Below, one piece after another: positions 11,801 through 48,979 of a stretch of DNA of 64,000 bases. The stretch is from a virus, in IMG/VR virus record IMGVR_UViG_3300037963_004147, positions 39,154 to 103,153 of that record. One strand, written 5' to 3'. Positions within the stretch are counted from its first letter, which is position 1, and the number at the start of each line of letters is the position of its first letter. The notes beneath the pieces were generated by a model. It made no database searches. It was not told where the DNA came from and worked only from the letters and a program-made list of their open reading frames with translations. A program made the translations under genes and the position numbers.

Positions 11801-14800
11801 AACTTATGATAATGTTAAAGAAGAAGGTGACTTAATTGCAGGATATAATGCTGATAAGTCAGGACAAAAGTTTGATCCAGATGGCAGAGCATTTAAATTT
11901 CATAATACAGGAAATTTATTAACTGCTATAAAACTTAAAAGTTTAGATAAATCCGGTATACCGCAGTTTTTAACTAAAACTGAAGTGTCAGATAGGCTTC
12001 GTAATAATAATGAAGGCTCACAAAAAATGTGGATGGCTTCAGATACAGCAGTTGAAAAATCAGGTCATAACCAAAGAGGTACTATAGTTCAAGTTATATT
12101 ACAGGGAGCTGAAAGTGTAGAGTATACAAATAAGAAAGGTAAAAAAGGTACAAAGCTTGAAGCTAATAAAGGTGATGATGGTACATTACACAATGTTAAG
12201 TATTGGGGTAAGATTAATTTTAAAGAACAAAGTGCTGAAGATAGACAAACTATTATACAAGCTTTAGGTAATGCTATAGTGCCACAATCTTTTGAAAGTG
12301 AAACTCATACAAATAAAGTTGTAATAGGAGATAAAGTATTTAAAGTAGAATCAAAAGGTTTAGCACAATGGTTAAGAGGTACTGGATCTCAACATTTTTA
12401 TCAAGTTGTTGAGGAAGCTGGAGAAGTAAATGAAAATTTAAAAGACTTAAAAGGTCAATTAGAAGAAGCAATTAAAGAGAATCCAGATGCATCATTTGAT
12501 GAACATTTAAAAGCAATTGGTGAATCAAGAGAGAGTTTAAAAAATTATGTTTCTAATAGATTAATAAGTGAGTTTAGACAATTTGATAAAGAAATTAAAG
12601 ATAGTAAAATTGAATTACCATCATTCTTAAAGACTGGTATTACTAGACCAAAAGATGGAACTACTGATGCCGGTAATTTTGCTGCAACAAATAGAAAGTT
12701 AAATCTAATTAAGGATAAAGATTATAACTTAATGCAAATATTTTTTAATGATTGGTTAAATACAACTGCTTTAAATGATGTTATACTTGGCGATCAAGCA
12801 ATATCATTAAAGGATGCAGTTGATCAAGTTAAAAGGGCTAAGATGCAAAATGCTGCATATTATAGTGCTAAAAGTGATATAGTAGCTCCTGATTTAGGTA
12901 TTAACGAAAAGGTTAGTAATATAGCATTGTTTCCTACCACAGAACCAACCGCACCTTCAAGACATACAAAGGCTAAGATTGATCAAGCAGATGCTCAGTT
13001 ATGGATGACACCAAAAGCATTCAAACATATGTGGTTTGGTTTTGGTAAACTAACACCATCACAAAGTGCATTATTTGATAAAGTAATGAAAGGGGAAAAG
13101 GTAAATGTGGAAGATATCTATGGTAAGAATGGTGCAGCTAAGAAAGGGGAAATGTTAAACTCTAAAAAACTTGTGTATGGCGATGGTCAAACATTTGTTA
13201 AGATGTCTGCATTCATGCTTTCAAAAGAATATACATCATATCAAAATGAAAAAGGTGATTGGGTAGCTAGACCAGATAAAGTAAAACTCCATAATATGAG
13301 GGAAAAAATGGAGGCCTATGAAAGAAAGCATAAAACAATTGCTGTATCAGCTCCTCTATCTGCATTAAAAATGATGAAGAAAAATGTCAATGACATTGAT
13401 TCTATGATTGATTTCTCTGGTGAATTAACTGAAAAGAATGCAATGAATCTTGATGCAGAGTACATGGGCCTTCAAGTATTAAATCCATCTAATAAATTAG
13501 AGATAGTTGATCCAACTCAAATTAGAACTATTGTTACTGGAGAACAAGAATTTCCTGATGATTTAACAGTTACATTGCCAGATGGTAATGAGATGTCTGT
13601 TCTACAATTAAGATCAGCATATAATCAAGCTGTTAGTGATAGACAAACTCAAAAGTATCTTGATAAAAGAAATTTAATTTTTGATATTGACTATGCAATG
13701 GATGAATTACATAAGGGAATGGCAGAAAATAAAATATCTGCAAATCTATTAAGTTATCTTCAATATGCTCAAACATCACTAAGCTCAAGTCAATCATCTA
13801 GTGAGTTATTAGAGTTCTTTAGTTTTGATCCAGATACTGGACAGCAAAATTATAATTTAGATAATCCAATAACTAAACAAAAATTTGAACAGTTATTTTT
13901 AAGCTATTTTAGTAAGAGTGTATTCTCTGAAAAAATACCAGGTACATCTGCTGCATTAGTTTCAGATTATGGAGTTAATGTTTATAGAAGAGTTTTAAGT
14001 GTTGATGAAAATGGATATCCGGATCAACAAGAAATAATAAGATCTGAAGATTTTATTCAAAACTACTCTGTTACAGATTTAGTTCAAGGTAAAGAAGGAC
14101 CTTTGGACTTTTCAAATGATGATCAATTTGGAAGATTAAAGACTGAGGTTGAAGCTTCAAAGGGTAAGGGTGTAATTATAATGGATAGACTTAGACCTGA
14201 TATGAAAGAGTATATAAATGGAAAATATACCGGTATAAAATATAGCGAATCAATAATGCCTGCTCATCATAGAGAAGTAATGGAATTAGTAGGAGATACT
14301 GGTCCTATTCCTGAAGCTGTTGCAAAAATGTTTGGTATACGTATACCATCTCAAGATAATCATTCTACTATAAGTATAAAATTAGTGGATATGATGCCAG
14401 CTTATTATGGATCAAGTATTATTTCACCAAGAGAATTAGTAGAGGTATCAGGAGCTGACTTTGATATTGATAAATTATATCTTCAAATGAAGGAATGGTT
14501 TGTTGATGACAATGGTAATTTTAAAGAGTATTCAAATTCTTTTGAGGATTATGTTAGATATATAAATAGTAAAGTAGGTACAAAAGGTACGAGTTATGCA
14601 GAGGCTCTTGCAAAATCAAAATTTAATTTAGATAACTCTTATACTGAAGCACAAAAGAAAGAAGCTATAGATGCAGGATTAACAGTTAGATCTTTAAATG
14701 CATTATCTGAATTAGGATTACCTATTTCAAAAAAAGAATACAATGCATATGTAAAGAAAAATGAAAGAGCACCTTTTGCAGCTGGATATAATAATGAAAT

Positions 14801-17800
14801 ATTAGATTATAAAACAGCTTTGATGAGTCATGAAGGTGTTACAAGTAAAACAGGTGAGAATTCTGCAATATCATATGAACCTGCAGATATAGAAGTATTA
14901 ACTGATCTTTGGGATGAAATACAAGAAGAAGTTCCTGAGTTAGCTGAATTAGTTAATGAAGATGGTTTAGATGCAAATAACCTTCTTGGTAAATGGAGAG
15001 GTTACACGAATAACCATGAAGGTGCAAGATCTATTGGTTCAGCTGTACTACCTAATTTATATTTAAGTTTATTACAAGAATATAATACTAAGTTTAAAAG
15101 TTTAAAAGTAGCAGGTGAAGAAACAGGTCCTAGATTTGTATTTAATGGTATAGTATATGATAAATTTACAAATAAGGTAGAGGATGGAATAGATTGGTCA
15201 AGAGAAGTTAACGCAGATGGTAGTCCTGGTAGAAGAAAACAATATATTATCTCTGCATTAATTACAGCAATGACTGATAATGCTAAAGAAAGATTAGCAG
15301 CTAAATTAGGATTAACTAGAGATTCATTAGGTGGAGTTACAATGTTAACTGCAATGGGTGTTCCAATTAGAACAAGTATATTATTATTTAATAATCCAAA
15401 TGTTAAAGAAGCATATTATCAAAAATCATTAGATGATTCATTTGATTTACAATCATACTTTAGAAAGAAAAGTCAACAGTATAAAAGAATTGCAAATAGC
15501 ATAGGTGGTGTTGATACTAATTTTGAATTAACTGATGATGCATTATTAGATGCTATACGTGATCCTGGACCAACATGGGGTAGCAATATAGAGTTAGGTA
15601 TTAAACTAAATGAAGCTCAAGAAGCTGGGCAAGATTTTATAACTGCAAAACAGTTAGTAACTCAAATGAAAGTTCTTGAAACAATGTATAAGCCGGCTAG
15701 ATCAAAGAAAAAATCTTCTAAAGCTACTGGTATAATTCCAATATCTTCAGAGTTTTTAAGTTTAGGTACATTAGTGTCTTTATCAAAAGGTATAGGAGGA
15801 AGTTTATCAGAAGCTGCTAGAATTGATAAGGCTATAAAAGATTTAAAACTTGATTTAACTGATGAAGCATATTCAAAACTTGACTTTAATGAAAAGCCTT
15901 ATGTAGATGTTAGAAAAATATTTAAAGGTAAAACTCATCAAGCTCAAACATTAAAAATGTTTCAAGAGTTTTATAATGAATTATTACCAAATGTTTTTAT
16001 TTCTCAATCAGAGCAGTTTAAGCAATTGATGGCTGCCATTCAAGCAAATGGTAATCCTGCAGCTTTTAGAGATGCTGAAGTTAGAGATATGGTAGAAAGA
16101 GATTTGCTTTCATACTTAACTTTAAAGTCTTATATGCATACTACCCAGCAAGAAAAAGATAATAGTTTTATAGGTCATTTATCTAATGATTTACTATATG
16201 GTATTAATGGTAAAACAATTGCAGATATAATTGATGAAGCTAGAGAAGCATTGGATGGAAAATATAATTATTTCATTCAAGACTTTATAAAACTAGAAAG
16301 AGCAACTGATACTGGTAATAAGACTGGTGTTGACATGGCTACTACAAATACTTTAACTAGATTAACTGACTCTGAGAAGGTAGACATACAAAATGGATTT
16401 AAAGAGTTATACAGTAATCCTGAGACAAGAGATTATGCTGTTTCAATTATAAATTACTTAATGGTAAAAGATGGATTGCAACCAACATATAAAACATTAT
16501 TAGCAGCTGTTGCACCTGCCGCATTAGGTAGATATTTAGATAATATTAATAATGTTAAAGCAGCATTTGCAAGAGGAAACTCTACATTATTTAAAAGTGT
16601 ATTTGGCTTAGATAAGTTTGAGTTAGGTCAAGACTTTTTAGATAACTACTATAGGTCAGCTAAATCTAGTAGAATAGTACCTTCAGTAGGAGATGACGTT
16701 GCAATTCCTGTATTTAATCCTAAATCTAAAGTAAATGTAGCAAAAGGTAATTTTACTGTAGATGAAGTTGCAAGTAATCCAAATACATTATATGTTATAT
16801 TTGATAATGAAGCTAATGTAGGAAGTGCTAATAGTAAAGCTGTTAGAGGAATGGATAATGTAATTTCTATTAACATTAAAAAATCTGATGCAAATATTCC
16901 AGAAAACTTTTATGATCAAACAGAAGAGGATACGGTAAAGCAATATCTTGCAGATAAGGTTAATGAAATATTATCTGAAAGATCTATAAAAGATGATATT
17001 GTATTTCAAAGTTCAATTGATAAAGCAACAAGGGATGCACTAAAGAAAAATAGTGAACCTGTATATAATGAGCTTATATCATTAATGACCAATAATTTTA
17101 AGTATAATATTGCAGGTTATAAAACAGAACAAGAAAGAGAAGGAGAAAAAATAAATAAACAAGCATTAGAATCTCCTATAAGAATTGAAAAGACTGGAGA
17201 TAGAAACTACTTGTACATTGATCTTTATAAAGGTATTGTTGCTACTCCTGAAATGCCTAACGCTGTTAATTATAAAGCAGCTCCAAGAAAAATGACAAAA
17301 GCAGGTCAAACTAAACTTTTAGAAAATAAAAATCTAATAAGCTCTAGAGGGTTTAAATTAAAAGGATTTCAAATAGATAATAAATATAATGAAGAAGTTC
17401 AACTGCCATTTACTGTTAGACATAAAGGTGTACTATACCAGTTAGTTAAAAAGACTAGTAGTGAAAAAGCTCCTATTAATACATCATCTGATATTATTTA
17501 TGATGGTAGCTCTTTTGCACAAGGTAGTAGTGCAGTTTATGTAGAATTACCTGCGATGGGATCTGTAGCACAATTTGGACCAGGATTTATATTTGGAGAG
17601 CAGAAAAAATATTCTCAAGTTAAAGAACTTATTGAAACCGCAAATGCACCAGAAGATGTACCTGCAGATGATTCAACAAATCCAAAAGCAAAAGAACAAA
17701 GTGACGATGATTTCTTAAAACAATTTAGTAATAAGGTATCAAGAGAGTATAATGAAAATACTAAAAAAGTTACTTTTACATCTAAAAATAAATCTGCAAA

Positions 17801-18122
17801 TGAGGTTACTGAATCTGATTATAAAAATGATATAGGAGATCCTAATAATGTAATAGATAGTTCTATTGATATAGGAGGTTCTGTAGATACAGCGGGTGAC
17901 AGTACATTTATATCTGAAGAGTCTGAAGGAGATGGAATGAATGTATCTATAGATGAACAAATAGAAAATTTCTGGGATAGTTTAGCAATACCGCAACTAA
18001 GAACACTTAAACAAGCAACTGGTATTGATACTGTAGCAGATATGAAAAAGGAATTTAAGAAACCATTTTATAAAGGAAATATTGATACCTTTATGGAAGT
18101 TATAAAATCATGTTTTAGTTAA
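2874..18122 (+). CDS. Giant multidomain virion RNA polymerase (crAss/YonO type) with zincin domain
   Basis: This 5,082-residue protein should be packaged in the virion and injected to transcribe early phage genes. The catalytic motif GADFDIDK supplies D3862, D3864 and D3866, preceded by the family hallmark GIRIPSQ...S at about 3820-3835. K3443, in DGQTFVKMS, is a candidate for the conserved lysine of the other double-psi beta-barrel. Residues about 240-290 are hydrophobic and Ala/Gly-rich (TIALEELAMWGATAALAA), possibly membrane-active. Coiled-coil-rich stretches occupy about 640-1050. An HEAFH zincin motif (H2174, E2175, H2178) is followed by EEYMADEF near 2241-2248, a likely third zinc ligand region. 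The polymerase is known from crAss-like phages, sometimes as several polypeptides; here it is fused into one very long chain. Autoproteolysis by the zincin is an inference. Confidence 0.93.
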   Translation: MSDFEKDVKSNAVNSIAPGVPQDMFVFESISDLETPPDIAEFDPNLDQGYLDMLSAAAPIINQFSPNPTSNMRSPFPGPATDTYNPVAQKVPKASGNESIMNKFRQIGEVAKNLNPENPENKNTTFGKSMNSIKIADPIFSSIRESQFDRYYEHGEFGKLGWHPYADNETYYNENSSWWDNAGRMFGEMGRLAWTGMKANYSSWGSADSMDLNAAVEFEDAMRIGSSTTGGFGGGLNNLLLQSGYTFGIIGTIALEELAMWGATAALAAATPFTAGASGAGAVATGTAATVRTGYNMAKLAKLGRRIADSFDVSRMLRGTRSMMKNMNKADNARGFWNSVRSGGNVLGNFVAPETMAAFKALKSAEKAGDNLTSMAKISKGVGGFYRDLRSLNFALSEGRMEAGSTYMDVLNRSMAQMKENNLAEGLSENLTDSQIAMADARAQEAAFATTSWNAPLIYLSNQLLLGNSMGGFKRTLNQAMRDNIEGVGRRILKTKAAVKTGKDGAKTIAKDVFEDVGESFMNYKYLYKSVKAGGIKGGATMAAGAGLRFFAANVGEGLQEVYQEAVAKGVSDYYTALATDPMAGGSELFQTSALAGLSEQFSGQGLHTFMSGFLMGGVVAGPQKLVFQGMPMLYQKTFNKKEYAEYKANKEKLVADLVNTYNSAWNSQADDVQNMFDSTKLNFLNQKQEASEMVAAQLEDSMFNFIDAKDNAKFQQLNTIFKTGRQDFYREQLEDYLQLTDEELAEAFPQEASRAKSGKLRSTIQDQIKKIDEMEVTYEKNLEDFVNPFDPKAFKPGSREQNDEALKHFAFEHARMLYLFTKDGFQRALERSESIFSELESDPVISKMAANDVTVLLNKDTLQQEISQLKAEIPGLGEAGTKRLKKDKEKKLEALEAVADVLYNEEYQTKTGRFDRRRIQKLTPTILNYLKTVARSKDAFVNPELIQETIKKIVDHNHLSNRQKVYDKSIQFLNNPDQFDAIVRRSYEYLKYAHKNQLEMYEKAIRKFINKKEINQFLNQLAKVGVYADMSETLEFAETGNIDSLTVFYSESGMVNKVNDPELFAEIQNLIQTYRQTAQPQVQSDIAESKSSEVKKSKKAQAVQEEVDEILEDAEISGPEAEVYGKAKDESPILEKLLKQKYQEVRAFAIQKGVKKIPSFNDYIKTPAAQSYISAYVALKKMWYQTLTGIEDEGIRMERFKKDQGFLSWLKLQQTNDKVVDVLSVTNTKFNDFIKGMAEDVGSTPEQDKKNKVAGLEGPSQIVEVKSTDDQGNPVTFYQILDKFGEPVAYELTEEAGLPVGLSFTDLGKAKQAKAKLDASIPDTAEMEIRNSKGEVVEKLVFGQEVIEKSTGNKYIVVSTPSKLSKGGKLYLFPASLAGTVTQLQARRNKSEKINPADFAGRFKASSYSLTDVSLPANVSKLNIDEATKIQYQQNGRFTKDKEWEGNSKKRFQLILQNLSEEQFNKLEVVVKRNIDGGKVTQEKFTFPEKAPNRLIKRTKQSYSIALRIPADIMKTLEPKILDADLALPENNILGYIPNTDVQLYDTNGARINPLNITTDQIGNLFQISGKTKENAAKEIRRNFAIQQSIVNDINKKLGKDESGTLTLEDIGGVNFVATAGQMQFLPTGVTNKIENLQYNTVDGTMVILDNGNNRFVTDMTGSVEDQIDFEDKVKADMQAQNTNIFENAKKAGRYVMIVKQPNGMFSYFPIKTDVLEKSTLNDIANEIIERSALSQKDNTKKIEGATTPVINDMEFNSEFNQELNNKFYIASTPGYSFDINVNANGAVELRVFDRDNKQVVKYIQNDKAAIEAWGKVEDKTQLLNELFENADKSFKEQYSKVTSKTPAIRKQVLKDVANLKLNLGSIRKSFPVTASASEIAETSVTTVGSQVRKDSKLRVNINGIDVSQIETAGVFTPSEVFTDANGNPIPKGGPLTTSSESMNNIEIEGAELDAMSKEDFEALKADNFKGLTEAQITAIAIKLSDPSSLTAREGQVMSNVVSSGIVQMKHLSLKKNNPASENTTPGETGSAQMDRSALMKKAASLRSKIEALEDAIADRGLSTTAEEEAIANDPEIKKLTKERNDILDKLSANKIVAENLSEEDVNNIDEFLAWAESALPGFITTQDINTLGNNTKAGGKRVGAFVMDMHNIAGGMNIAGTIYADQTKYAYHEAFHAVFRMLLTEEQQQKFYTIARKEVRAKLRAEGKSFKEEIEKLKNSDLTRYANYSQKALENLYYEEYMADEFQKFKTDPKSTKTDSFIKSFFNKLMEWLRSIFKKYNANELKFLFEEVDAGKFKTADVAVNSFTEEAGMGVTIQANKILRTKEISLDSGKKEYEYLDSKTSRAIISAISARVINEQLKSDNPEFDIVESVKESLNLYKNLYNNDTELYRSLNSSDKRKLRAVRKAFNEYGKDIVDGVLEELALYDIKLETAEDENGMFEEAFGLRTTSDWDKDASMTGGFRSLPSFLRKYIGTTVFVDEVNGKPKTDMFGNLHLPVSDIGTQKQENVLTTVDFGVAYSGFLKASSGQTDPVKVMQQLYLFGKNNPQTQAVVRRLMDDVGLVWEGQLEEGIIPDNLKDPSLFQAIIKGFSNFKVDYLFIHRRTSDNQVFTYNAANRDDAHTQIEKWSEAYRQLRVLQANNPDKLNASLKDLRKLLGYLDPNKPQNKISNGKLDVLSNNIAKSLKEATGISLSPQYIEFSIASNILEPTANQKSIINANSDVKAIEYEDVMYLRNGLEEGSNIMSESDEGVYNRLRQMALGNAPFDENIGASVFKNPNGDLVYAHQLPTFHLKQIAKLNDVKGAGEVIKQLKEKDYLEQNSLVNSPWFKQLSAEGRLKVTRIAGTKASKNIRQDDAGGIEEGYDKNETGTTYGELSKADIINSLVSSYIANVNAVSGKVNGVFAEGEERALAPSLLRVIEASSTGDMVSLPVMKTVEKGEGGSIQLTDEALTAYINNIQAEANRIASEHKGKTYDNVKEEGDLIAGYNADKSGQKFDPDGRAFKFHNTGNLLTAIKLKSLDKSGIPQFLTKTEVSDRLRNNNEGSQKMWMASDTAVEKSGHNQRGTIVQVILQGAESVEYTNKKGKKGTKLEANKGDDGTLHNVKYWGKINFKEQSAEDRQTIIQALGNAIVPQSFESETHTNKVVIGDKVFKVESKGLAQWLRGTGSQHFYQVVEEAGEVNENLKDLKGQLEEAIKENPDASFDEHLKAIGESRESLKNYVSNRLISEFRQFDKEIKDSKIELPSFLKTGITRPKDGTTDAGNFAATNRKLNLIKDKDYNLMQIFFNDWLNTTALNDVILGDQAISLKDAVDQVKRAKMQNAAYYSAKSDIVAPDLGINEKVSNIALFPTTEPTAPSRHTKAKIDQADAQLWMTPKAFKHMWFGFGKLTPSQSALFDKVMKGEKVNVEDIYGKNGAAKKGEMLNSKKLVYGDGQTFVKMSAFMLSKEYTSYQNEKGDWVARPDKVKLHNMREKMEAYERKHKTIAVSAPLSALKMMKKNVNDIDSMIDFSGELTEKNAMNLDAEYMGLQVLNPSNKLEIVDPTQIRTIVTGEQEFPDDLTVTLPDGNEMSVLQLRSAYNQAVSDRQTQKYLDKRNLIFDIDYAMDELHKGMAENKISANLLSYLQYAQTSLSSSQSSSELLEFFSFDPDTGQQNYNLDNPITKQKFEQLFLSYFSKSVFSEKIPGTSAALVSDYGVNVYRRVLSVDENGYPDQQEIIRSEDFIQNYSVTDLVQGKEGPLDFSNDDQFGRLKTEVEASKGKGVIIMDRLRPDMKEYINGKYTGIKYSESIMPAHHREVMELVGDTGPIPEAVAKMFGIRIPSQDNHSTISIKLVDMMPAYYGSSIISPRELVEVSGADFDIDKLYLQMKEWFVDDNGNFKEYSNSFEDYVRYINSKVGTKGTSYAEALAKSKFNLDNSYTEAQKKEAIDAGLTVRSLNALSELGLPISKKEYNAYVKKNERAPFAAGYNNEILDYKTALMSHEGVTSKTGENSAISYEPADIEVLTDLWDEIQEEVPELAELVNEDGLDANNLLGKWRGYTNNHEGARSIGSAVLPNLYLSLLQEYNTKFKSLKVAGEETGPRFVFNGIVYDKFTNKVEDGIDWSREVNADGSPGRRKQYIISALITAMTDNAKERLAAKLGLTRDSLGGVTMLTAMGVPIRTSILLFNNPNVKEAYYQKSLDDSFDLQSYFRKKSQQYKRIANSIGGVDTNFELTDDALLDAIRDPGPTWGSNIELGIKLNEAQEAGQDFITAKQLVTQMKVLETMYKPARSKKKSSKATGIIPISSEFLSLGTLVSLSKGIGGSLSEAARIDKAIKDLKLDLTDEAYSKLDFNEKPYVDVRKIFKGKTHQAQTLKMFQEFYNELLPNVFISQSEQFKQLMAAIQANGNPAAFRDAEVRDMVERDLLSYLTLKSYMHTTQQEKDNSFIGHLSNDLLYGINGKTIADIIDEAREALDGKYNYFIQDFIKLERATDTGNKTGVDMATTNTLTRLTDSEKVDIQNGFKELYSNPETRDYAVSIINYLMVKDGLQPTYKTLLAAVAPAALGRYLDNINNVKAAFARGNSTLFKSVFGLDKFELGQDFLDNYYRSAKSSRIVPSVGDDVAIPVFNPKSKVNVAKGNFTVDEVASNPNTLYVIFDNEANVGSANSKAVRGMDNVISINIKKSDANIPENFYDQTEEDTVKQYLADKVNEILSERSIKDDIVFQSSIDKATRDALKKNSEPVYNELISLMTNNFKYNIAGYKTEQEREGEKINKQALESPIRIEKTGDRNYLYIDLYKGIVATPEMPNAVNYKAAPRKMTKAGQTKLLENKNLISSRGFKLKGFQIDNKYNEEVQLPFTVRHKGVLYQLVKKTSSEKAPINTSSDIIYDGSSFAQGSSAVYVELPAMGSVAQFGPGFIFGEQKKYSQVKELIETANAPEDVPADDSTNPKAKEQSDDDFLKQFSNKVSREYNENTKKVTFTSKNKSANEVTESDYKNDIGDPNNVIDSSIDIGGSVDTAGDSTFISEESEGDGMNVSIDEQIENFWDSLAIPQLRTLKQATGIDTVADMKKEFKKPFYKGNIDTFMEVIKSCFS

Positions 18123-38238: not shown

Positions 38239-38325
38239 TTAAGTTATTAAATATAGGATAATGCCTATGATAATCATAAGCAAAATCCTATGCATAATTG
38301 TAAACATTAATCCTTCTTCTTCCAT
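38239..38325 (-). CDS. 28-aa membrane microprotein coupled to the polymerase gene
   Basis: The ATG overlaps the TAA of the DNA polymerase gene (TAATG). The frame reads MEEEGLMFTIMHRI and then LLMIIIGIILYLIT: an acidic N-terminus and one hydrophobic helix. The stop/start overlap gives translational coupling and supports a real gene. No function is known. Confidence 0.5.
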   Translation of the reverse strand: MEEEGLMFTIMHRILLMIIIGIILYLIT

Positions 38326-40325
38326 TAAAATAATTCTAATTGATTAATACTAACTGATAATATATTATTTATCTCAGATTCAATTGCTTTACTATAATAA
38401 GCAGTATCTACCTTGTAGTCTTCCCACTTAGGTTTGATATCTATCTCATTATATAAAGTCTGCATCCATTTACCAGATTCTAATTGAATTTCTCTATTAT
38501 CATTCTTATTAACTTTAATTATCTTAACGCTATCTCCACCGGATTTAGATATATAATATCTATTTGTTTTTTGAAGGTCTTTCTCAAAGAAATTACCATC
38601 TATTATAGATCTTGAAACTTGCTTCCAATTACCTTTGGATTTACCTCCAATGCAGTAATCTAATATATTACGATTCTTTTTCAGATAATCTTCAGGAAGA
38701 ATATCTTTTACAAAGTAGTTATATATTGCTTTTTTAATAACAAGTTTAGATTTATTTTTATGCAACATTAAATCATGGAAATTAAACCGTCCCTTTAATT
38801 TAACAGGAGCATATAGAAACTTAGATTTTTTTACTTTAAATAAATAATGAGGATTCTTTTCCTTCATCTTTCTCCATGCAGTTATATCAACTTCTTTAAA
38901 TTCATTTACAGCAATGTAATTGTTAACATCACCTAAAACAATCTTCTGATATGTATCATGTTCAAGATTTAATTGAGTTATAACTTCCCATTCATTACAA
39001 ATCTTTAAATAAAGATCTTTCTTATCTTTTGGGATTCTAATCTCAACACCATCCGTATTTTGTAATAAACCAACAGCTTCAGGTATCCCATCAAGTATCA
39101 TATCATATAACATCATTAGGCTTAGTTGGCCATTTAAAGTTATACGCATACATAATTCTGGGTCATAAAAGAAACTATTCTCTTCATTACTCAAACCGAA
39201 TGTTGAATTAAGTATAATTTTATATACATAATTCATAGGATTAGACTTTGGAATTTTAACTCTTTCATCAAAGAACCATTCATATTGATCACAAAACTCT
39301 TTCTTTGGGAAATGAGCTGGTGACCATTGATTTCTAATACAAAGATTAGGATAAAAACTAGTAACATCTGAAGTCATAATAATATGATCCTCATCAGATT
39401 TATAAACAGCACTCTTTCTAGCACCGTGAATACCACCTAATGCAAAAGTTGTATGTACACCTTTATGTTCTAGTTCATATCTAAATTGACCTTTAAGATT
39501 CATTGCATCTAATTCAAGACATTTAAATCTTTCAAGAGCAGCTTTAAACACGGGAGACTTAAATTCTATATAAGGAAGTATAAGATCTTTAACCTTAATA
39601 GTATTTCTATAAGTCTTCATGCTTTTAATCTCTCTAGGATGCATGTTTAACTTCTTACCTAAATAATAGGCAAATAACTCTTTAGCAATCTTTGGTTCTG
39701 AGGCACTAAATAAATTAATACCATACTGTGATGTTAACTCTTTACGTAATTTAATTTCTGATTTAGATCTGTTAAATATTTCTTTAGTAGATGCTACATC
39801 ATTAATACAATATTTTACAATTGTATTTAACTCTTCTTTAGTTTTAATTTCAGTTTCATGATGTATAGGCATATCTAAAAGATTTTGCCAATCCATACTA
39901 AACTGAATCCATTTAAGACTAGAACGTTTAGCAACATTATCCCAGTGATGTAATTTAAATAAATCAATTTGACCTATCTGCAAATGCCAGGGAGCAAATA
40001 CACCCCACTCTTTTTTATTTTGTCTAGCAATTGTTTCTTGAGCAAATTTATAAATTACTTCTGCTATTGCACATCCGGACATATTAGACCATAAATCACA
40101 ATTATTAAGTATATACTGAGTAACTTGGGCATCAAAGGCTAAGCCATTAAATGATATATGCCATTGTTTCTCATCTTTATTAGTGTGTAAAAATTCTATA
40201 AACTCTTCAAAATCATTTTGTAGATCATGAACAATAAACTTCTTTCTTTCAGAAGTTTTATAATGTTCAAATACTGCAACAAAACAATTAGACAAAGTTT
40301 CATAATCCATTATCCAATGTGTCAT
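38325..40325 (-). CDS. Family B DNA polymerase with 3'-5' exonuclease
   Basis: This 666-residue replicative polymerase has a complete exonuclease: D7/E9 in MDYET (Exo I), N60-F64-D65 in SFNGLAFDA (Exo II), and Y172/D176 in YCINDV (Exo III). Polymerase motif A is D320VTSFYP; motif B is K369IILNSTFG. Motif C reads QN423TD425G, where the canonical sequence is DTD, so only the second aspartate is kept. The length is short for the family, and no protein-priming terminal protein is evident next to it. It begins about 25 bases after a terminator hairpin, so it may be an attenuated or separate transcription unit. It works with the primase, DnaB-like helicase and SSB encoded further along the strand. 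Confidence 0.92.
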   Translation of the reverse strand: MTHWIMDYETLSNCFVAVFEHYKTSERKKFIVHDLQNDFEEFIEFLHTNKDEKQWHISFNGLAFDAQVTQYILNNCDLWSNMSGCAIAEVIYKFAQETIARQNKKEWGVFAPWHLQIGQIDLFKLHHWDNVAKRSSLKWIQFSMDWQNLLDMPIHHETEIKTKEELNTIVKYCINDVASTKEIFNRSKSEIKLRKELTSQYGINLFSASEPKIAKELFAYYLGKKLNMHPREIKSMKTYRNTIKVKDLILPYIEFKSPVFKAALERFKCLELDAMNLKGQFRYELEHKGVHTTFALGGIHGARKSAVYKSDEDHIIMTSDVTSFYPNLCIRNQWSPAHFPKKEFCDQYEWFFDERVKIPKSNPMNYVYKIILNSTFGLSNEENSFFYDPELCMRITLNGQLSLMMLYDMILDGIPEAVGLLQNTDGVEIRIPKDKKDLYLKICNEWEVITQLNLEHDTYQKIVLGDVNNYIAVNEFKEVDITAWRKMKEKNPHYLFKVKKSKFLYAPVKLKGRFNFHDLMLHKNKSKLVIKKAIYNYFVKDILPEDYLKKNRNILDYCIGGKSKGNWKQVSRSIIDGNFFEKDLQKTNRYYISKSGGDSVKIIKVNKNDNREIQLESGKWMQTLYNEIDIKPKWEDYKVDTAYYSKAIESEINNILSVSINQLELF

Positions 40326-40876: not shown

Positions 40877-41458
40877 TTATATTTTGTCTAAAGATATAGA
40901 ATTATTTTTTAAAAGTGCAACTTCTGCTGGAATTTTTTCATGTAATGTTTCTTTTTCTAAATCTGGTTTTGAACATATTTCATGTACTTCTTTTATTGTT
41001 TCTATACTAATTTCAAATGCCTCAGCATATACTTCATGATATTTTAAAGGATTCAAAAAACTTTCAATATACTCACTTATCTTTCCAACACTACCAAAAT
41101 ATTTTAATACTTTATTTTTAGTTGGTGTTGAAAATTTTGAGTATCTGCCATTTATAAACATATCAAAATCATGATTAAATTTTGAGTAATCAAACACATA
41201 AATGTGTCTATCTTTTTCTATTTCTGTGGCAAATTCTAATAGTTTATGTGACTTTAAAACTCTATCTTCAAAAAGTTTAAACTTTAGATCTTTATCACAA
41301 TTATATACAACTATGTACTTATAATCATTTTCTGTATAAAGACCGTCCCAGGAGATATATGTTTCTACTGGGACAAATTCTTCACCTTTTTTAATACCTA
41401 ATAAAGGGTATAAAAAAACTTTACTTTTTTGAAAATATTGAGTATAAGCACCTATCAT
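40877..41458 (-). CDS. 193-aa protein, unknown function
   Basis: The soluble alpha/beta protein has a beta-rich N-terminus (KVFLYPLLGIKKGEEFVPVE, YKYIVVYNCD, RHIYVFDYSKF) and a helical C-terminus. The start overlaps the stop of the PD-(D/E)XK nuclease gene by one base, implying coupled expression with it. No family recognised. Its context with nuclease and polymerase suggests DNA metabolism. Confidence 0.6.
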   Translation of the reverse strand: MIGAYTQYFQKSKVFLYPLLGIKKGEEFVPVETYISWDGLYTENDYKYIVVYNCDKDLKFKLFEDRVLKSHKLLEFATEIEKDRHIYVFDYSKFNHDFDMFINGRYSKFSTPTKNKVLKYFGSVGKISEYIESFLNPLKYHEVYAEAFEISIETIKEVHEICSKPDLEKETLHEKIPAEVALLKNNSISLDKI

Positions 41459-42453
41459 TATATATATTGTTTTTGTGTTAAAAATATATAGGGCAGGCTG
41501 TAATCTTTCTCTGAATAATGATAGTTGGCTTCTTGCAATGTAATAAATAATCCTTCAGCCCAAGCACCCATAGTAGACTCTAGTACATCAAATACATAAA
41601 CCTGATTATACTTGTCTATTACTACAAACTTAAACAAAATTTCATAATTATCTTTATTTTCTTGCTGTAAATATTCAAAAACTAATTTATAATATATAGC
41701 AGCTTGCATCCAATAATTATAAAAGTCTATTGTATCATTAAACTCAGAAATAGTCTTACCGGTTGTCTTTAAATCACAAATAATAACTTTTTTATTTTCA
41801 TGATCTACTTTAAAGTAATCTATAAAACCATGTAAACCAAAGTTAAAATTCTTCAAACTACAATTTAAGTATTTCTCACAATGAACTTCTATAGAATCAA
41901 GTTCAAAATCTGTTTGTTTATTTTCTTGATCTCCAAACAAACTCATTACTTCTTTATTTGATTTTAGTATCTCAACTTGACGTTTACACTTTTCTAATGT
42001 ATCATTATCAATAACATCTACATTTGAATTGTTTAGAAATTTCCAATAAGGTTTAAAGTCTTCAACTTTAATCTTAGCAATTCTTTGCTCATCAGTTTTA
42101 AGAGACTGATATAAATTCATTTCTTTCAATGAATCAAGAATTACAAAATCTTCAATTTTATCTAAATCAACCTCATCTGTATGAAGAGTCATATCCTTCA
42201 TTACTTTTCTAACATTATCACTAGGTGACTTACCAGGAACAATATTAAATTTATTCTCTAGATTATTAGGCTCAAATAGTAAACAATGAATTAACTTACC
42301 TTCTATAAGATGTTTATCAGTTTGGATCTCACGATCTTTTAATATATAATCTTTATAAAATAAAGACGGGGAAAATTGTATTTTATTTAATGAAGAATAA
42401 CTAAAGTTAAAATCTTTAGCATAGAACTCTTCTTCTTTTTGTTTATCAATCAT
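41458..42453 (-). CDS. PD-(D/E)XK exonuclease (RecB/Cas4-like fold)
   Basis: The 331-residue protein carries the RecB-type nuclease signature. An early helix has the motif GKLIHCLLFEP (about 52-62), then come GFIDYF and VIICDLKTTGK (about 210-230; Asp, then Asp-x-Lys) and QAAIYYKL (about 250-257). Related phage proteins process DNA ends for recombination or degrade host DNA. Four or eight base overlaps join it to both neighbours, the Mom-like gene upstream and the 193-aa gene downstream. It lacks the Cys cluster of Cas4 or AddB, so it is probably iron-sulfur free. Confidence 0.8.
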   Translation of the reverse strand: MIDKQKEEEFYAKDFNFSYSSLNKIQFSPSLFYKDYILKDREIQTDKHLIEGKLIHCLLFEPNNLENKFNIVPGKSPSDNVRKVMKDMTLHTDEVDLDKIEDFVILDSLKEMNLYQSLKTDEQRIAKIKVEDFKPYWKFLNNSNVDVIDNDTLEKCKRQVEILKSNKEVMSLFGDQENKQTDFELDSIEVHCEKYLNCSLKNFNFGLHGFIDYFKVDHENKKVIICDLKTTGKTISEFNDTIDFYNYWMQAAIYYKLVFEYLQQENKDNYEILFKFVVIDKYNQVYVFDVLESTMGAWAEGLFITLQEANYHYSEKDYSLPYIFLTQKQYI

Positions 42454-43087
42454 TCTTAACTATTTTACCATCTTTTGTGAAGATGAGGTTATCTGTATTT
42501 CTTGAATTAACTATTATATTTTTTCTGTTAGTTCTAGTATATATGTATCTATGCTTGGCATAATTCCCATCATGTATATATCCCATATCTAACATTTGTT
42601 TTTTATTATAGTTATTCTTTCCACTTTTTCTAGATACTTGTCTATTGGTATTAGGATCTATATATCTAGGATTCTTGCCAGTTAATCCATTGTAGTTCCA
42701 GTTAGATGCTCTATACAAACCACCATCATGATTCAATGCTGTATCTGCATATGTCAATAGCATTCCCCATCTATTATCTAGTTTCTTTATACTTTGACTA
42801 ATAAGAAATGATCCTGAATTTTCAGGCCTATCATCACGTAAACAAAATCTACTTAATGATAATACACTTCTGTGGTTACAGCTAACTGATTTTGCAGCTC
42901 CTGCTGGTGGAGGATTCCAAACTGATACACCATGTAATGTATGAGGATCTCCTTTATAGTATAAGCCAAAAACATTTGTTGCTACATTACCCATGCCGTT
43001 TGCATAGTGCCAGTTTTCTACAAAGCTTTTTGCTATGTCTTTACTTATGGGTTTAACATCCCATTGATTTTTAATTAGTTTCATCAT
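42446..43087 (-). CDS. Mom-like putative DNA-modifying acyltransferase
   Basis: The 213 residues resemble phage Mu Mom, a GNAT-like protein that modifies adenine in phage DNA to resist restriction. The matching blocks are SKDIAKSFVENWHYANG (14-30), VFGLYYKG, LSLSRFCLRDDRPENSGSFL (about 76-95), LLTYADTALNHDGGLYRASN and WNYNGLTG (about 109-135). The run of conserved Arg, Asn, Ser, Tyr, Asp and His positions fits the family. No second-strand translation activator like Com is obvious. It overlaps the upstream lipoprotein gene by 17 bases and the downstream nuclease gene by 8. The modification chemistry in this phage is unknown, and target specificity cannot be read from sequence. Confidence 0.7.
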   Translation of the reverse strand: MMKLIKNQWDVKPISKDIAKSFVENWHYANGMGNVATNVFGLYYKGDPHTLHGVSVWNPPPAGAAKSVSCNHRSVLSLSRFCLRDDRPENSGSFLISQSIKKLDNRWGMLLTYADTALNHDGGLYRASNWNYNGLTGKNPRYIDPNTNRQVSRKSGKNNYNKKQMLDMGYIHDGNYAKHRYIYTRTNRKNIIVNSRNTDNLIFTKDGKIVKND

Positions 43088-43352
43088 GAAATTTTATTAA
43101 GTGTGTGCAATACGTACTATATTGTATGCCCTGATGCTTAAAGATTAAGATATCTGAATACATTCTTGTCTCAATCCTATAACAATCTTTATATATTATT
43201 GTAGTATCTGGATAATATAAAGTGATGTCTCCTTCTATGTTTGAAGATCTAAAATAATATGCATCACCATCTTTGTCAACTTTTGCTTCAGTGCAACTTA
43301 CTAACATAAATACAGTTGTTACTGATATTAAAAATTTTTGTAATTGTTTCAT
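43071..43352 (-). CDS. Small phage-encoded lipoprotein
   Basis: A typical lipoprotein signal peptide (MKQLQKFLISVTTVFMLVSC) places the lipidated Cys at residue 20. The mature part, about 73 residues, is beta-rich with two further Cys (KDCYRI, STYCTHL) that could form a disulfide in the periplasm. Phage lipoproteins often block superinfection or act as outer spanins; neither can be decided here. It overlaps the Mom-like gene by 17 bases and follows the SPL-like gene by 2. Confidence 0.75.
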   Translation of the reverse strand: MKQLQKFLISVTTVFMLVSCTEAKVDKDGDAYYFRSSNIEGDITLYYPDTTIIYKDCYRIETRMYSDILIFKHQGIQYSTYCTHLIKFHDETN

Positions 43353-43354
43353 AA

Positions 43355-44188
43355 TTAAAATATATATCTAATTGTATCAAGATTGAAATAGCAAGAGTAT
43401 AACTGTTTAAACTCCTCAAGTAATCTTGTTTTATGTTTTATAGGATATCTCATAATACCTTTGCTATTCTTTTTTTCATAAGCCCTTCTCATAAGCTCTT
43501 GTGCTTCTGGTGAAGCTTTAGCCATTTGATTAGCATGATTAGTTAATGCAATTACTTCACATTTATTTTCACCTGCTATTTTAGCTACCATATGAAATAG
43601 TTCTTGATATTCTTCTTTCCATCCTGGATAAAATACTAATGGACTATAATTAACATGAACTTCCCATCCTAATATTTTAAGCCTATTAATATCATGAATT
43701 CTTGACTTTATGCCTTGCATCTTAGGTTCAAGTATATTTGAATACTTTTGTGGCATTAAACTAACTCTTACTCTAGGTGCTTTATTAAAATGTAAAACAT
43801 CTAGTTTTAAACGCTTAGGGTATTTAGTAGCCATTGTTGTATTTAATCTAGGATGATCATCATACCTTTTAAGGTAATCAATTAAAGGTTCTGGCAATTT
43901 CTTTTGCATTAATACTAAATCTGTATTGCATGCTATATCTACCATAGTATATATAGGATCCTGTTGATCTGGGACTTTGGTAAAACCTTTTTCCCATTCT
44001 ACAACAGACTGAAATATTTCATCAACATTTTCATTTACAAAGACTCTATGACCATTATATCTAGACATATAACAATAGGTATCTACACAACCTCCAAAGC
44101 ATCCGTAGATTAAATTGGGAGCTATGCAGTTTGCACTATTATTATTGTTTTTAGTAATTAAAGTTTTAGTTTTTTGATACTTTATCAT
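43355..44188 (-). CDS. Spore photoproduct lyase-like radical SAM protein
   Basis: The 277-residue protein resembles the SPL family. A Cys cluster (C30-x3-C34-x4-C39, in YGCFGGCVDTYCYMSRY) precedes the segment VHVNYSPLVFYPGWKEEYQELF at about 195-216, which is close to the family's HxNxSPVIxYxGWxxxY block. The canonical cluster is Cx3Cx2C; the last spacing here is longer by two, so iron-sulfur chemistry should be tested. SPL repairs UV-induced spore photoproduct; phage relatives have unproven substrates. It lies downstream of a pseudoknot element with a T-run. Confidence 0.7.
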   Translation of the reverse strand: MIKYQKTKTLITKNNNNSANCIAPNLIYGCFGGCVDTYCYMSRYNGHRVFVNENVDEIFQSVVEWEKGFTKVPDQQDPIYTMVDIACNTDLVLMQKKLPEPLIDYLKRYDDHPRLNTTMATKYPKRLKLDVLHFNKAPRVRVSLMPQKYSNILEPKMQGIKSRIHDINRLKILGWEVHVNYSPLVFYPGWKEEYQELFHMVAKIAGENKCEVIALTNHANQMAKASPEAQELMRRAYEKKNSKGIMRYPIKHKTRLLEEFKQLYSCYFNLDTIRYIF

Positions 44189-44201
44189 TTAACATAATTT
44201 A

Positions 44202-44263
44202 AAAGGGGTGGGTACGCCCCATGACAAAACGTACCCAATAACAATCAATTATGGCTACCCCTA
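44202..44263 (-). terminator. Pseudoknot-type terminator element (44.2 kb)
   Basis: Minus-strand order: GGGTACG (44237-44231), 9-base loop, GGGG (44221-44218), CGTACCC (44217-44211), one base, CCCC (44209-44206), TTTT. The 7-bp and 4-bp stems cross. An alternative nested fold pairs AGGGGT (44263-44258) with ACCCCT (44210-44205) outside the 7-bp hairpin. Either ends in T4 about 14 bases before the SPL-like gene. It fills most of the gap between that gene and the 412-aa gene. Confidence 0.55.
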
Positions 44264-44268
44264 GTATA

Positions 44269-45507
44269 TTAAAATGGAAGATCATCTAATGGACCTTCAC
44301 TTATTTGATATCCTTCTTTTAACTTTATAGATTCAAAATCAACAGTTAAAGTTTTAGAATTTTTAAATCCTGCATTTTGACCAATAACATAATTAAATAC
44401 AGCTTCTGCAATTTTTCTATATGCAAATGATGTTAATGCATTTTCTTTATGCAGCTCTTTGCATAGATGATCATAACCAAATATTCTTGATCTATCCCAT
44501 CTACAACTAAAGCCTGAAAGTCTTTTTCTTAATGCTTTAACATTTACAGAATTCCAATTCTTACCATATCTTAGCCAATCTTCATAAAAGAAGAATAAAC
44601 ATGCTAGTTTATCAATAGATTTTTCAACATTACAATTTGACATTATTTCTAATCCCATCATTACATTTTCTGGATCAGCACTTTTAAACATAGCTTCTAG
44701 ACTTTTATATTGTTCTTCAGTAAGAACAACAGAATCTTCATTACATATTTTTACTAAATCTGTATCTAATATGATTTTTTGGTCATCGGTTATATTTCTT
44801 AAAGTATTTAGTTGATCTACATTAGAATAAATATACATGTTTTCATTTCCATGTTTTATATTTTGTTCTAAATCTCTATAACTTTTTTGTACAGTACTTC
44901 TCAAATTTTGAATCTCTGTAATATTATCACAGTTATATCTATATTGAAAAGCTACACGGAATCTTGCATCTATATCTTTTATACTTGTAATGAATTCAGA
45001 TAGTGCAGACTTTAACTCTTGAGTCATATGATCCGCTATTTCTTTTAGATACTTTTTAAAAAGATCTTTTGTAAGAAAAGTGTAGTAACTATAATCTGCC
45101 ATGCTTTCAATAAATCTTTGAGATACAATTAATAAATCAGCTTTATCTGGCTTCCTTGTAACTTTAACATTATATTTATCTTTCAGATTATTAACCTTCA
45201 TTGTTGGTAAATCTAACTTTGGAAATCTATATATAGACTTATCTTTTATATCACCTATTTCAGATAATTCAAACCCAAGTTGTGAAGCATCAATATTATA
45301 TCTCCAACGAGATTCATTATGAATAACTTCAAATCCCTTGAAATAATTAAAACCTACATCATCTTGTATAAGTTCAGCTTTTGTAGTATTACAAATCTGA
45401 GTTTTTGAATTAGCAAATGAATTCATTCCAATCATTCTTTTAGCTCCTGCAGCTTCTTGACTTAAGCATTCATCTCTTAATATTATTTCAAAATTATATA
45501 TTCTCAT
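44269..45507 (-). CDS. 412-aa replication-region protein with SSB-like C-terminal tip
   Basis: No family recognised. The first 130 residues are mixed alpha/beta and include KVTRKPDKADLLIVSQRF, which resembles a segment of the next upstream protein (VTITNDYEKADFIITNDDF). The centre is long-helical (LRSTVQKSYRDLEQNIKHG). The C-terminus reads GPLDDLPF, like the acidic DDxPF tip through which bacterial SSB recruits partners. The start overlaps the 342-aa gene stop by 4 bases. A DNA-associated role is plausible from tip and position. Confidence 0.65.
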   Translation of the reverse strand: MRIYNFEIILRDECLSQEAAGAKRMIGMNSFANSKTQICNTTKAELIQDDVGFNYFKGFEVIHNESRWRYNIDASQLGFELSEIGDIKDKSIYRFPKLDLPTMKVNNLKDKYNVKVTRKPDKADLLIVSQRFIESMADYSYYTFLTKDLFKKYLKEIADHMTQELKSALSEFITSIKDIDARFRVAFQYRYNCDNITEIQNLRSTVQKSYRDLEQNIKHGNENMYIYSNVDQLNTLRNITDDQKIILDTDLVKICNEDSVVLTEEQYKSLEAMFKSADPENVMMGLEIMSNCNVEKSIDKLACLFFFYEDWLRYGKNWNSVNVKALRKRLSGFSCRWDRSRIFGYDHLCKELHKENALTSFAYRKIAEAVFNYVIGQNAGFKNSKTLTVDFESIKLKEGYQISEGPLDDLPF

Positions 45508-46533: not shown

Positions 46534-47811
46534 TTATTTTATAGTCATTTTAATTATCTCAGGCTTCATCATAAGTTTATTAAACTTAGCTTTGTTACCA
46601 TTAAATATAGTTCTCACAACTAAATACTTAAGATCATTTGTGAAATAGTCTTTTGTGCATAAAGTTTCTAATCTATCAGTTATTTTTTGATTGATTGTAT
46701 TATCCTTTGAATACACAACAGCGAAGTTTGCAAGTCTTGTTGCAAGAGTTGATGCAATATCTGCACGATATTCATCATCTTTTCCTATACATCCTGTTAG
46801 TTCACCAAGAATATATTGTTCATTATCATGAGTCAATAAATCTTTTGGAGTAACAAGTTTATCTAACTTATTATTAATAAATGTAGTAAACATAGATGCA
46901 AATTCATCTCCAACACTACCTTCACCAATCATTTGAATATAAGGTAAGTTATCTTCAAAATTTTCAAAGCTAGATATAGCATTAAAGAATGTAGTTATTG
47001 CTCTTGCATTTGTTTCTTGCGTTACAAGCTCTGGATGAAGTAGCATAAAGTTAATACATCTTGTATCAATACCTGCTTCTTCTGCCCAACGAGCCCATAC
47101 TTCAGTATCATATTGCAGATTAGCTGTAATATAACGTGTCTTCTGTGCAGCATCAACTGAATTAACCATATAGTCTCCGTTATCCGGATTTGCGGTTAAT
47201 ACAATATGCCAGTCTTTTGGTAAAGTCCAAGAGATATACGTCTGACGATCTATCAGCTCCATCACGGCTTGAATAAATCTAACGTCTGCACGATTCCAAT
47301 CATCAAGAAGAAGGATTCCACCTTTCTTCTTACCAGAAATCCACTCAGGTGCACAATAAGACATTCTATTCTTACCGGTTAGTTTAAAACCATTCTTTAA
47401 ATAATCACTTACTGCAAGTTCACTTACCCACTGCCCAATCTTCTTTGTAACAGAAGTACCTTTAGCTAGTGCAGCAACGTCTGATGATGCAGCTTTCTTA
47501 CCCGCACCATAATTTACAGTATCTTGATTTTTATTCAATGATATAACTTGTTCTTTATACATTTGGAACTCTCTCACTGGAAAGCCAACAAGATCACCAA
47601 GCTCTTCAATTTGAGCTAAATTTAATTTAACAAAATCAAGGTCATGATCCTCAGCAATTTGTTTTACTGTGGATGTTTTACCAATACCCGATTCACCAAG
47701 AACTTCTACTGATACAGGAAGTTTTCCCTGATCTTGTAGAAATCTATTATTAGTTATCATGTGGGACATAAATCCCTTTAAATCATCAATGTTAAGATTA
47801 ACTTGTGCCAT
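46534..47811 (-). CDS. MoxR-type AAA+ ATPase
   Basis: The 425-residue protein has Walker A GESGIGKT (39-46), Walker B GGILLLDDWNRA (D170, D171), a sensor segment LTANPDNGDY (about 209-218) and the downstream small AAA+ lid. MoxR ATPases act as chaperones and nearly always pair with a von Willebrand A protein, encoded here by the next upstream gene (10 bases away). In phages this pair is widespread but its substrate is unknown; assembly or remodelling of a metal-dependent or replication complex is a common proposal. The ATPase appears fully active. Confidence 0.85.
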   Translation of the reverse strand: MAQVNLNIDDLKGFMSHMITNNRFLQDQGKLPVSVEVLGESGIGKTSTVKQIAEDHDLDFVKLNLAQIEELGDLVGFPVREFQMYKEQVISLNKNQDTVNYGAGKKAASSDVAALAKGTSVTKKIGQWVSELAVSDYLKNGFKLTGKNRMSYCAPEWISGKKKGGILLLDDWNRADVRFIQAVMELIDRQTYISWTLPKDWHIVLTANPDNGDYMVNSVDAAQKTRYITANLQYDTEVWARWAEEAGIDTRCINFMLLHPELVTQETNARAITTFFNAISSFENFEDNLPYIQMIGEGSVGDEFASMFTTFINNKLDKLVTPKDLLTHDNEQYILGELTGCIGKDDEYRADIASTLATRLANFAVVYSKDNTINQKITDRLETLCTKDYFTNDLKYLVVRTIFNGNKAKFNKLMMKPEIIKMTIK

Positions 47812-47821
47812 AATTGTTTTT

Positions 47822-48979
47822 TTAATTTAGTTGTATTTTTTTTCCTGGTAATTCATCATTTATTCTACTCCTAGAACTATGTACCCAAAGTGTATTATTT
47901 GGACAATCTTCTGGAGGCCATGCTTCACCATCTGTTAAATATATAAGGGCTGTGTATTTTCCCTTTTGTTCATTATAATGATCAATAACTGGTTGAAATG
48001 ATGTACCACCTCTACCATGTATTTCCCAATCTTTCTTTGGATTAAAATCCTCTACTTTATTTAGCCGTGTATCACATTGTGCTACAGTAATCTTATGACC
48101 TGTTTTGTGCATATGGCATAATTCACTAAAGAATTCTTTCAACTCCTCATTACATACTGAACCTGATGTATCAACACCAACTAGTATATGATTTTTAAAT
48201 TTAATTTTTAATCCAGGGTTTTCTATGTACCTTTTATTATACTTTCTTCTTAGTTTCTTTGTATAAACTATAGAAGAATTACCAACAAATCTTCTTAGAT
48301 AAGCCTTCCAATTAAATTTAGGAGGTTCAATATGTCTTAATCTTTTAATAAGATCACTGAGCTCTCCAGGAATGTTTCCTTGTCTTTTTTCTGTTAATTC
48401 AGCATTCTCTTTAAGTTGATGCTCAATTTGTTTTTGAATTAACTTTTTTTCTGCTTCTGGAATATCTTCAACTTCTTCCCAAGTTTTATGACAATATGGA
48501 CTTTCACCATCCATTTGATCAAGCATACTTTCTAATGATGGCGATGTTCCATCTTGTTTAGCTTCTTCTAAAAGTTTATAATATTCAAAAGTACCAGCTC
48601 TTTCAGGAAGATCAAGTTCAGGAAACGTATCCATTGTTATACCACCGTCCGGTAAATCATTAGCATTTATATATTGATTAATCTCAAGATCTGCAGCTAT
48701 ATTAAATAACTTCTTATCTGCAAAAGAATCTCTAACTAAAAGATGACCAAATGATATATGTAATAATTCATGCTTCATCAATCCAATTCTGTGTCTTTCT
48801 GAAAGATCAGATACAAAATCTGGATTTACTGTAAGTTGAACACCAATACCATTTTTGGATACACCAGCTGTAGGTATTTTATCAGTATAAACCTTATTAA
48901 GGCCAATCAAAAAGAGCCCGTAAAAGGGCTCTTCAAAAATTAATGTTTTTGTTGCTTTAGATATTAAGTTTGCTACCAT
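47822..48979 (-). CDS. VWA-domain metallopeptidase-like protein (DUF2201 type)
   Basis: This is the partner of the MoxR ATPase. The N-terminal half has a zincin motif KHELLHISFGH (H70, E71, H74), followed by NIAADLEINQYI (D98 as likely third ligand). The C-terminal half is a von Willebrand A domain with MIDAS DTSGS (D270, S272, S274). The middle (about 140-215) is charged and helical. The same two-domain arrangement is known from bacterial and phage MoxR-VWA operons. Whether the protease is active or only metal-binding cannot be told from sequence, but all three ligands appear present. Confidence 0.85.
   Translation of the reverse strand: MVANLISKATKTLIFEEPFYGLFLIGLNKVYTDKIPTAGVSKNGIGVQLTVNPDFVSDLSERHRIGLMKHELLHISFGHLLVRDSFADKKLFNIAADLEINQYINANDLPDGGITMDTFPELDLPERAGTFEYYKLLEEAKQDGTSPSLESMLDQMDGESPYCHKTWEEVEDIPEAEKKLIQKQIEHQLKENAELTEKRQGNIPGELSDLIKRLRHIEPPKFNWKAYLRRFVGNSSIVYTKKLRRKYNKRYIENPGLKIKFKNHILVGVDTSGSVCNEELKEFFSELCHMHKTGHKITVAQCDTRLNKVEDFNPKKDWEIHGRGGTSFQPVIDHYNEQKGKYTALIYLTDGEAWPPEDCPNNTLWVHSSRSRINDELPGKKIQLN

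What the first reader, a model, noticed from the sequence alone, without database searches (positions are those of the whole stretch)
42446..43087. Mom-like acyltransferase: possible DNA modification in a crAss-like phage
Several blocks match Mu Mom (FVENWHYANG, LSRFCLRDDRPENSGSFL, YADTALNHDGGLYRASNW). Mom protects phage DNA by modifying adenine. A Mom-like gene next to nuclease and polymerase genes suggests modified DNA that evades host restriction.
Basis: partly seen in the sequence, partly recalled or inferred. Interest (0 to 1): 0.65.

Follow-up and report, generated by a model that had tools for sequence, protein, structure and literature searches.

The report
Mobile Mom gene in crAss-like phage
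A crAss-like phage from a metagenome carries a genuine copy of Mom, the enzyme with which phage Mu chemically masks adenines in its DNA against bacterial restriction enzymes; the enzyme is a known kind, but here it is a swapped-in gene that has moved between very distant crAss-like phages.

Summary
Confirmed. The ORF 42446-43087 (-), 213 aa, is Mom: Pfam Mom E=2.8e-29, PHROG 1384 E=1.7e-33. Its predicted fold best matches the Mu Mom crystal structure 8bv8, and Mu Ser124 (S124A is inactive) is conserved as S93. The phage is crAss-like (terminase, portal, DFDID RNA polymerase motif).

The direct match to Mu is weak (the family profiles carry it), and the neighbouring nuclease and polymerase are core replication genes kept in relatives without mom.

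What is new is the evolution. This mom belongs to a small, isolated Mom clade (100/99 support). Every record of it found to hold a terminase is crAss-like. The protein is 71-77% identical to copies in phages whose terminase and portal are 21-24% identical or not detectably similar, so mom moved laterally among deep crAss-like lineages. None of 27 close relatives (portal 75-87%) has Mom in the contig searched. In relative L010 the 882-bp lipoprotein+mom block is replaced by another small gene, with sharp edges.

Likely mechanism (inferred): N6-methylcarbamoylation of adenine that blocks host restriction. Chemistry, target and protection are untested. A new member of a known kind.

The parts
42446..43087 (-). 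mom gene: 213-aa Mom-family DNA-adenine modification enzyme (GNAT fold)
   Evidence: Pfam PF25680 E 2.8e-29; PHROG 1384 E 1.7e-33; model pLDDT 85.4 best matches 8bv8 Mu Mom; Mu S124 conserved as S93
43071..43352 (-). 93-aa small lipoprotein-like ORF overlapping the mom start by 17 nt; lies in the same swapped block as mom; no zinc finger, so not Com
   Evidence: sequence with lipobox-like LVSC; no Pfam hit
42454..43335 (-). swapped block (lipoprotein ORF + mom), 882 bp; replaced in close relative L010 by 386 bp with a 136-aa ORF
   Evidence: blastn: homology to L010 stops at 43336 and resumes at the exonuclease start 42453
41458..42453 (-). PD-(D/E)XK exonuclease-VIII-like gene; overlaps the mom stop by 8 nt (probable shared transcript); core gene, not mom-linked
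   Evidence: phrog_412 E 1e-17, PF12705; retained in mom-less relatives
43355..44188 (-). spore-photoproduct-lyase-family radical SAM protein, upstream neighbour; itself mobile among crAss-like phages
   Evidence: TIGR03886 E 9.9e-41, below its curated cut-off; PF20903 E 2.3e-14; invariant CX3CX4C
38325..40325 (-). DNA polymerase of the replication module (context)
   Evidence: phrog_1252 E 1.9e-129

Best explanation
The gene encodes an active Mom enzyme. Probably expressed with the replication genes of the minus-strand module, it would add the Mu-type group (N6-methylcarbamoyl) to the N6 of adenines in phage DNA, using a CoA-linked donor, so that host restriction endonucleases cannot cut the genome when it enters the next cell. 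It is an accessory anti-restriction cassette (small lipoprotein gene + mom) set between two genes of the replication module, and it has moved laterally between very distant crAss-like phages, which fits a counter-defence gene under changing host pressure. Shown: family membership, fold, conserved catalytic serine, purifying selection in relatives, crAss-like genome, gene swap, lateral transfer. Inferred: catalytic activity, chemical nature of the adduct, target sequence, protection from restriction, timing.
For: Mom profiles with E 1e-29 to 1e-33. AlphaFold model pLDDT 85.4, pTM 0.80; Foldseek best hit 8bv8 'phage Mu protein Mom inactive mutant S124A', E 5e-11, TM 0.63-0.66, ordinary GNATs only at about 2e-5. 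Mu S124 = S93, invariant in 44 of 44 homologues with H27, Y28, R80, A114, G122, Y125, A127, N129 (D115 in 43). dN/dS 0.05-0.14 in relatives L001/2/3/5. Lateral movement: Mom 75-77% identical to phage G002 while TerL is 24% and portal 21%; 71% and 59% to G006 and G005 with no detectable BLAST match of TerL or portal; 0 of 27 close relatives by portal (75-87%) carry any Mom in the searched contig; sharp swap edges against L010.
Against: No biochemical data for any member of this clade. The clade sits on a long stem (1.58 changes per site), and some otherwise conserved positions near the active region differ (Q to R at 126, N to S at 79, T to N at 133), so donor, adduct or target may differ from Mu. 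No Com-like regulator and no stable structure over the start codon. Many relatives in the portal test are partial contigs.
Confidence: 0.85

Rival explanations
1. A Mom-fold enzyme that still modifies DNA adenine but with a different acyl/carbamoyl group or different target sequence from Mu, i.e. a specificity-shifted Mom subfamily of crAss-like phages.
For: Isolated clade with 100/99 support and a stem of 1.58; clade-specific residues beside invariant ones (R126, N133, S79); a clade-specific C-terminal region.
Against: All family-wide invariant positions are kept, including the Mu S124 equivalent. Divergence between Mom clades is generally large.
Confidence: 0.25
2. A GNAT that acetylates a protein (for example host RNA polymerase or a ribosomal protein) rather than DNA.
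For: Mom is a member of the GNAT superfamily, and phage GNATs that modify host proteins are known (PMC7824862).
Against: Sequence and fold both place it with Mom and far from ordinary GNATs (8bv8 at 5e-11 against about 2e-5 for the next structure; profile E 1.5e-47).
Confidence: 0.05
3. Modification half of a restriction-modification pair with the adjacent PD-(D/E)XK nuclease, attacking host or rival-phage DNA while mom protects the phage, as proposed for jumbo-phage Mom-REase fusions.
For: The nuclease gene directly follows and overlaps mom by 8 nt; Mom-REase fusions are described in jumbo phages (PMC7824862).
Against: The nuclease is exonuclease VIII-like and is retained, 55-66% identical, in relatives without mom (L010, L013, L016, L021, L022, L024); the distant mom-bearing phages have different neighbours (PolA and helicase in L001-L006).
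Confidence: 0.04
4. A decaying or non-expressed gene acquired by chance.
For: Patchy presence (0 of 27 close relatives).
Against: Intact ORF with all conserved residues; low dN/dS in relatives; overlaps both neighbours as in an operon.
Confidence: 0.04

Closest known systems
Phage Mu Mom (PDB 8bv8, PF25680)
   Same: Same family and fold; catalytic Ser124 and the other family-wide invariant residues conserved; a small upstream ORF overlaps the mom start in both.
   Different: Only about 24-28% identical; no com-like zinc-finger regulator; lies in the replication module of a crAss-like phage, not at the late end of a transposable phage.
Mom-like proteins of Listeria phage A511, Bacillus phage Riggi, Polaribacter phage P12002L, Vibrio phage ICP1
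   Same: Same Pfam/PHROG family, Mom proteins of tailed phages.
   Different: 25-33% identical; not crAss-like; A511, Riggi and P12002L fall outside the clade found here, ICP1 by identity only.
Jumbo-phage Mom-REase fusions (PMC7824862)
   Same: Mom domain proposed to protect phage DNA.
   Different: Here no fusion; the neighbouring nuclease is a core exonuclease whose distribution is independent of mom.
Mom clade of crAss-like contigs L001-L009, L126, L127
   Same: 59-77% identical, same clade at 100/99.
   Different: Other genomic positions (PolA/helicase junction, near a primase, next to the SPL-like gene) and, where testable, very distant genomes (TerL/portal 21-24% or undetectable).

Membership tests
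Mom (PF25680 / PHROG 1384) | Profile match above curated threshold over nearly the whole length | tested here: met
   102.7 bits against 27.1, residues 9-188 on profile 2-188 of 202
Mom (PF25680 / PHROG 1384) | GNAT-like fold closest to Mu Mom | tested here: met
   Foldseek top hits 8bv8 chains B and A, E 5e-11 and 7e-10
Mom (PF25680 / PHROG 1384) | Conserved catalytic serine (Mu S124; S124A is called inactive in the PDB entry title) | tested here: met
   S93, invariant in 44 of 44
Mom (PF25680 / PHROG 1384) | Produces N6-methylcarbamoyl adenine in DNA | not testable with these tools
   needs nucleoside mass spectrometry
Mom (PF25680 / PHROG 1384) | Protects phage DNA from restriction | not testable with these tools
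   needs digestion and plating tests
com-mom operon of Mu | Overlapping upstream com encoding a CCCC zinc-finger translational activator, with a structured mom start region | tested here: not met
   Upstream ORF 43071-43352 overlaps mom but is lipoprotein-like without zinc-finger cysteines; start-region fold z = 0.12
crAss-like phages | crAss-type TerL, portal and capsid genes | tested here: met
   phrog_6681 E 1.5e-50, phrog_6547 E 1.5e-91, phrog_11589 E 1.7e-30; tblastn hits dominated by crAss-like phages and relatives
crAss-like phages | Giant RNA polymerase ORF with DFDID-type motif | tested here: met
   GADFDIDKLYL at residue 3862 of the 5082-aa ORF 2874-18122; meaning of the motif from general knowledge

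The most novel reading that the evidence does not exclude
The isolated crAss-like Mom clade is a specificity-shifted enzyme that places a different adduct, or modifies a different adenine context, from Mu Mom, and is passed between deep crAss-like lineages as a dedicated anti-restriction cassette.
Probability: 0.2. Interest if true: 0.6.

Novelty: new member of a known kind. Interest (0 to 1): 0.32.

Why it matters
crAss-like phages are among the most abundant phages known, and how they survive host restriction is little explored; no report of Mom in them was found in the open papers searched, and seven complete reference genomes (crAss-like phages and close relatives) gave none. A Mom clade that is swapped between lineages with almost unrelated structural genes is a natural test case for counter-defence genes moving between viruses, and gives concrete targets for looking for modified adenine in environmental phage DNA, for example by nanopore signal.

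Tried and rejected
Link between the SPL-like radical SAM gene and mom as one modification pathway: rejected as a general rule, because 23 of 24 SPL-bearing loci found lack mom nearby and most mom loci lack a close SPL relative; the two are neighbours only in the window and in L027. Restriction-partner role for the PD-(D/E)XK neighbour: rejected by its presence in mom-less relatives. Com-like regulation: the upstream ORF is lipoprotein-like and the start region has no unusual RNA structure. Companion methyltransferases: none (PF01555, PF00145 in 8 records, controls positive). PADLOC defence models: none. Papers: no open text found that gives the Mom mechanism residue by residue; the importance of S124 is taken from the PDB title.

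Full report
Observation. The ORF at 42446-43087 (minus strand) encodes 213 aa. It matches Pfam Mom (PF25680, E 2.8e-29, 102.7 bits against a cut-off of 27.1) and PHROG 1384 'Mom-like DNA modification protein' (E 1.7e-33). In the PDB the only meaningful sequence match is 8bv8, 'Methylcarbamoylase mom' (E 1.1e-5; E 1.5e-47 with a 44-sequence profile). The direct match to Mu Mom is weak (28% over 124 residues, E 2e-3), so the identification rests on the family profile and fold rather than on similarity to Mu itself.

Fold and active site. An AlphaFold model from 44 aligned homologues has mean pLDDT 85.4 and pTM 0.80; only residues 190-212 are poorly predicted. Foldseek against the PDB returns both chains of 8bv8, the phage Mu Mom inactive mutant S124A, first (E 5e-11 and 7e-10, TM 0.63-0.66); other GNAT acetyltransferases follow at about 2e-5. 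Mu S124 (position checked) aligns with S93, invariant in all 44 sequences, together with H27, Y28, G53, R80, A114, G122, Y125, A127, N129 and G134 (D115 in 43 of 44). Among relatives L001, L002, L003 and L005 dN/dS is 0.05-0.14, so the gene is kept by selection there.

The phage. The window is part of a 114,909-base IMG/VR record. TerL matches phrog_6681 (E 1.5e-50), portal phrog_6547 (E 1.5e-91), capsid phrog_11589 (E 1.7e-30). tblastn of TerL and portal finds mainly Crassvirales and their relatives; the best portal match by score is Leptolyngbya phage Lbo-JY46 (33%), with csAssE-Sib next among those listed. The 5082-aa ORF carries GADFDIDKLYL, the DFDID motif of crAss-like RNA polymerases (meaning of the motif from general knowledge).

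Neighbourhood. Upstream lie a 93-aa lipoprotein-like ORF overlapping the mom start by 17 nt and a spore-photoproduct-lyase-family radical SAM gene; downstream, overlapping the mom stop by 8 nt, an exonuclease VIII-like PD-(D/E)XK gene, then PolB 2 kb on. The nuclease and polymerase are present in relatives that have no mom (L010, L013, L016, L021, L022, L024; L024 is a 9-kb contig without mom at this site), so they are core replication genes. In L010 (PolB 85% identical) nucleotide similarity runs through the SPL-like gene to window position 43336 and resumes exactly at the exonuclease start at 42453; the 882 bp between (lipoprotein + mom) correspond to 386 bp with an unrelated 136-aa ORF. In L024 the SPL-like and exonuclease genes abut, and in L013, L016, L021 and L022 the SPL-like gene is elsewhere. 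This junction is a site of gene turnover.

Relatives and lateral movement. A scan of IMG/VR with a family alignment gave at least 565 Mom-encoding candidates, but only 12 contigs belong to, or lie near, the window's own group; nine sequences from it form one clade (100/99) on a stem of 1.58. Where packaging genes were found in records of this clade they are crAss-like TerL and portal (G000, G002, G005, G006; the other records are fragments without them). None of 36 contigs with other Moms has the crAss-like portal, with phi14:2 as positive control (many of these contigs are short). Mom is 75-77% identical between the window and G002, yet TerL is 24% and portal 21%; against G006 and G005 (Mom 71% and 59%) TerL and portal give no BLAST match at 1e-5; conversely G011, 65% identical in TerL and 64% in portal, has no Mom. 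Of 27 records of at least 20 kb with portal 75-87% identical, none has a Mom in the contig. The mom neighbours in L001-L006 are PolA and a helicase. Lateral transfer between deep crAss-like lineages, probably recent in this phage, is the simplest account; unequal rates are unlikely to explain 75% against 21-24%.

Mechanism. Mu Mom makes N6-methylcarbamoyl adenine (named so in PMC8281217), and this protects phage DNA from many restriction enzymes (PMC6483171; PMC7824862). The conserved active site makes the same reaction the best guess here. Activity, adduct, target context and protection are inferred. Clade-specific residues near invariant ones (S79, R126, N133) leave room for altered specificity.

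Novelty. The enzyme family, its function and its wide occurrence in phages are known. I found no description of Mom in crAss-like phages in the open papers searched, and none in seven complete reference genomes of crAss-like phages and close relatives (that call had no positive control, but the same model rings in the clade's own records). This is a new member of a known kind with an informative evolutionary pattern.

Noticed in passing
43355-44188 (-); L010-L033: Spore-photoproduct-lyase-family radical SAM gene with an invariant CX3CX4C motif (instead of the classic CX3CX2C), 70-90% identical across contigs whose other genes are often only 25-50% identical, and at different genome positions: apparently a mobile gene of crAss-like phages. 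No match in the public phage collection.
   Followed up: partly
42453-44269 and L010, L013, L016, L021, L024: The stretch between the 412-aa gene (44269-45507) and the exonuclease gene is a turnover site: SPL-like gene, lipoprotein+mom, a 136-aa ORF or nothing in different relatives.
   Followed up: partly
43071-43352 (-) and L010:9622-10005: Small lipoprotein-like ORFs with lipobox-like motifs in the same region of both phages; possibly surface or superinfection-exclusion functions.
   Followed up: no
47822-48979 (-): PHROG names this family an HNH endonuclease (phrog_1314), but Pfam finds a DUF2201 metallopeptidase/VWA-like protein next to an AAA ATPase (46534-47811): likely a MoxR-VWA-like pair and a misnamed PHROG.
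   Followed up: no
L065, L066, L083: Mom ORFs of 314-424 aa, longer than usual by 100-200 C-terminal residues; possible Mom fusions.
   Followed up: no
L108 4966-5902, L109 4679-5615: Mom matches stretched over about 940 bp for 136 residues, suggesting an insertion or intervening sequence within mom.
   Followed up: no
G002:C1:37627-38463: The distant mom-bearing phage G002 also has a divergent (37%) SPL-family gene.
   Followed up: no
L036:1768-4524, L036:6045-7664: The closest isolate by portal and capsid is a cyanobacterial phage, Leptolyngbya phage Lbo-JY46 (33% and 28%), annotated only as hypothetical proteins; crAss-like relatives may infect cyanobacteria.
   Followed up: no
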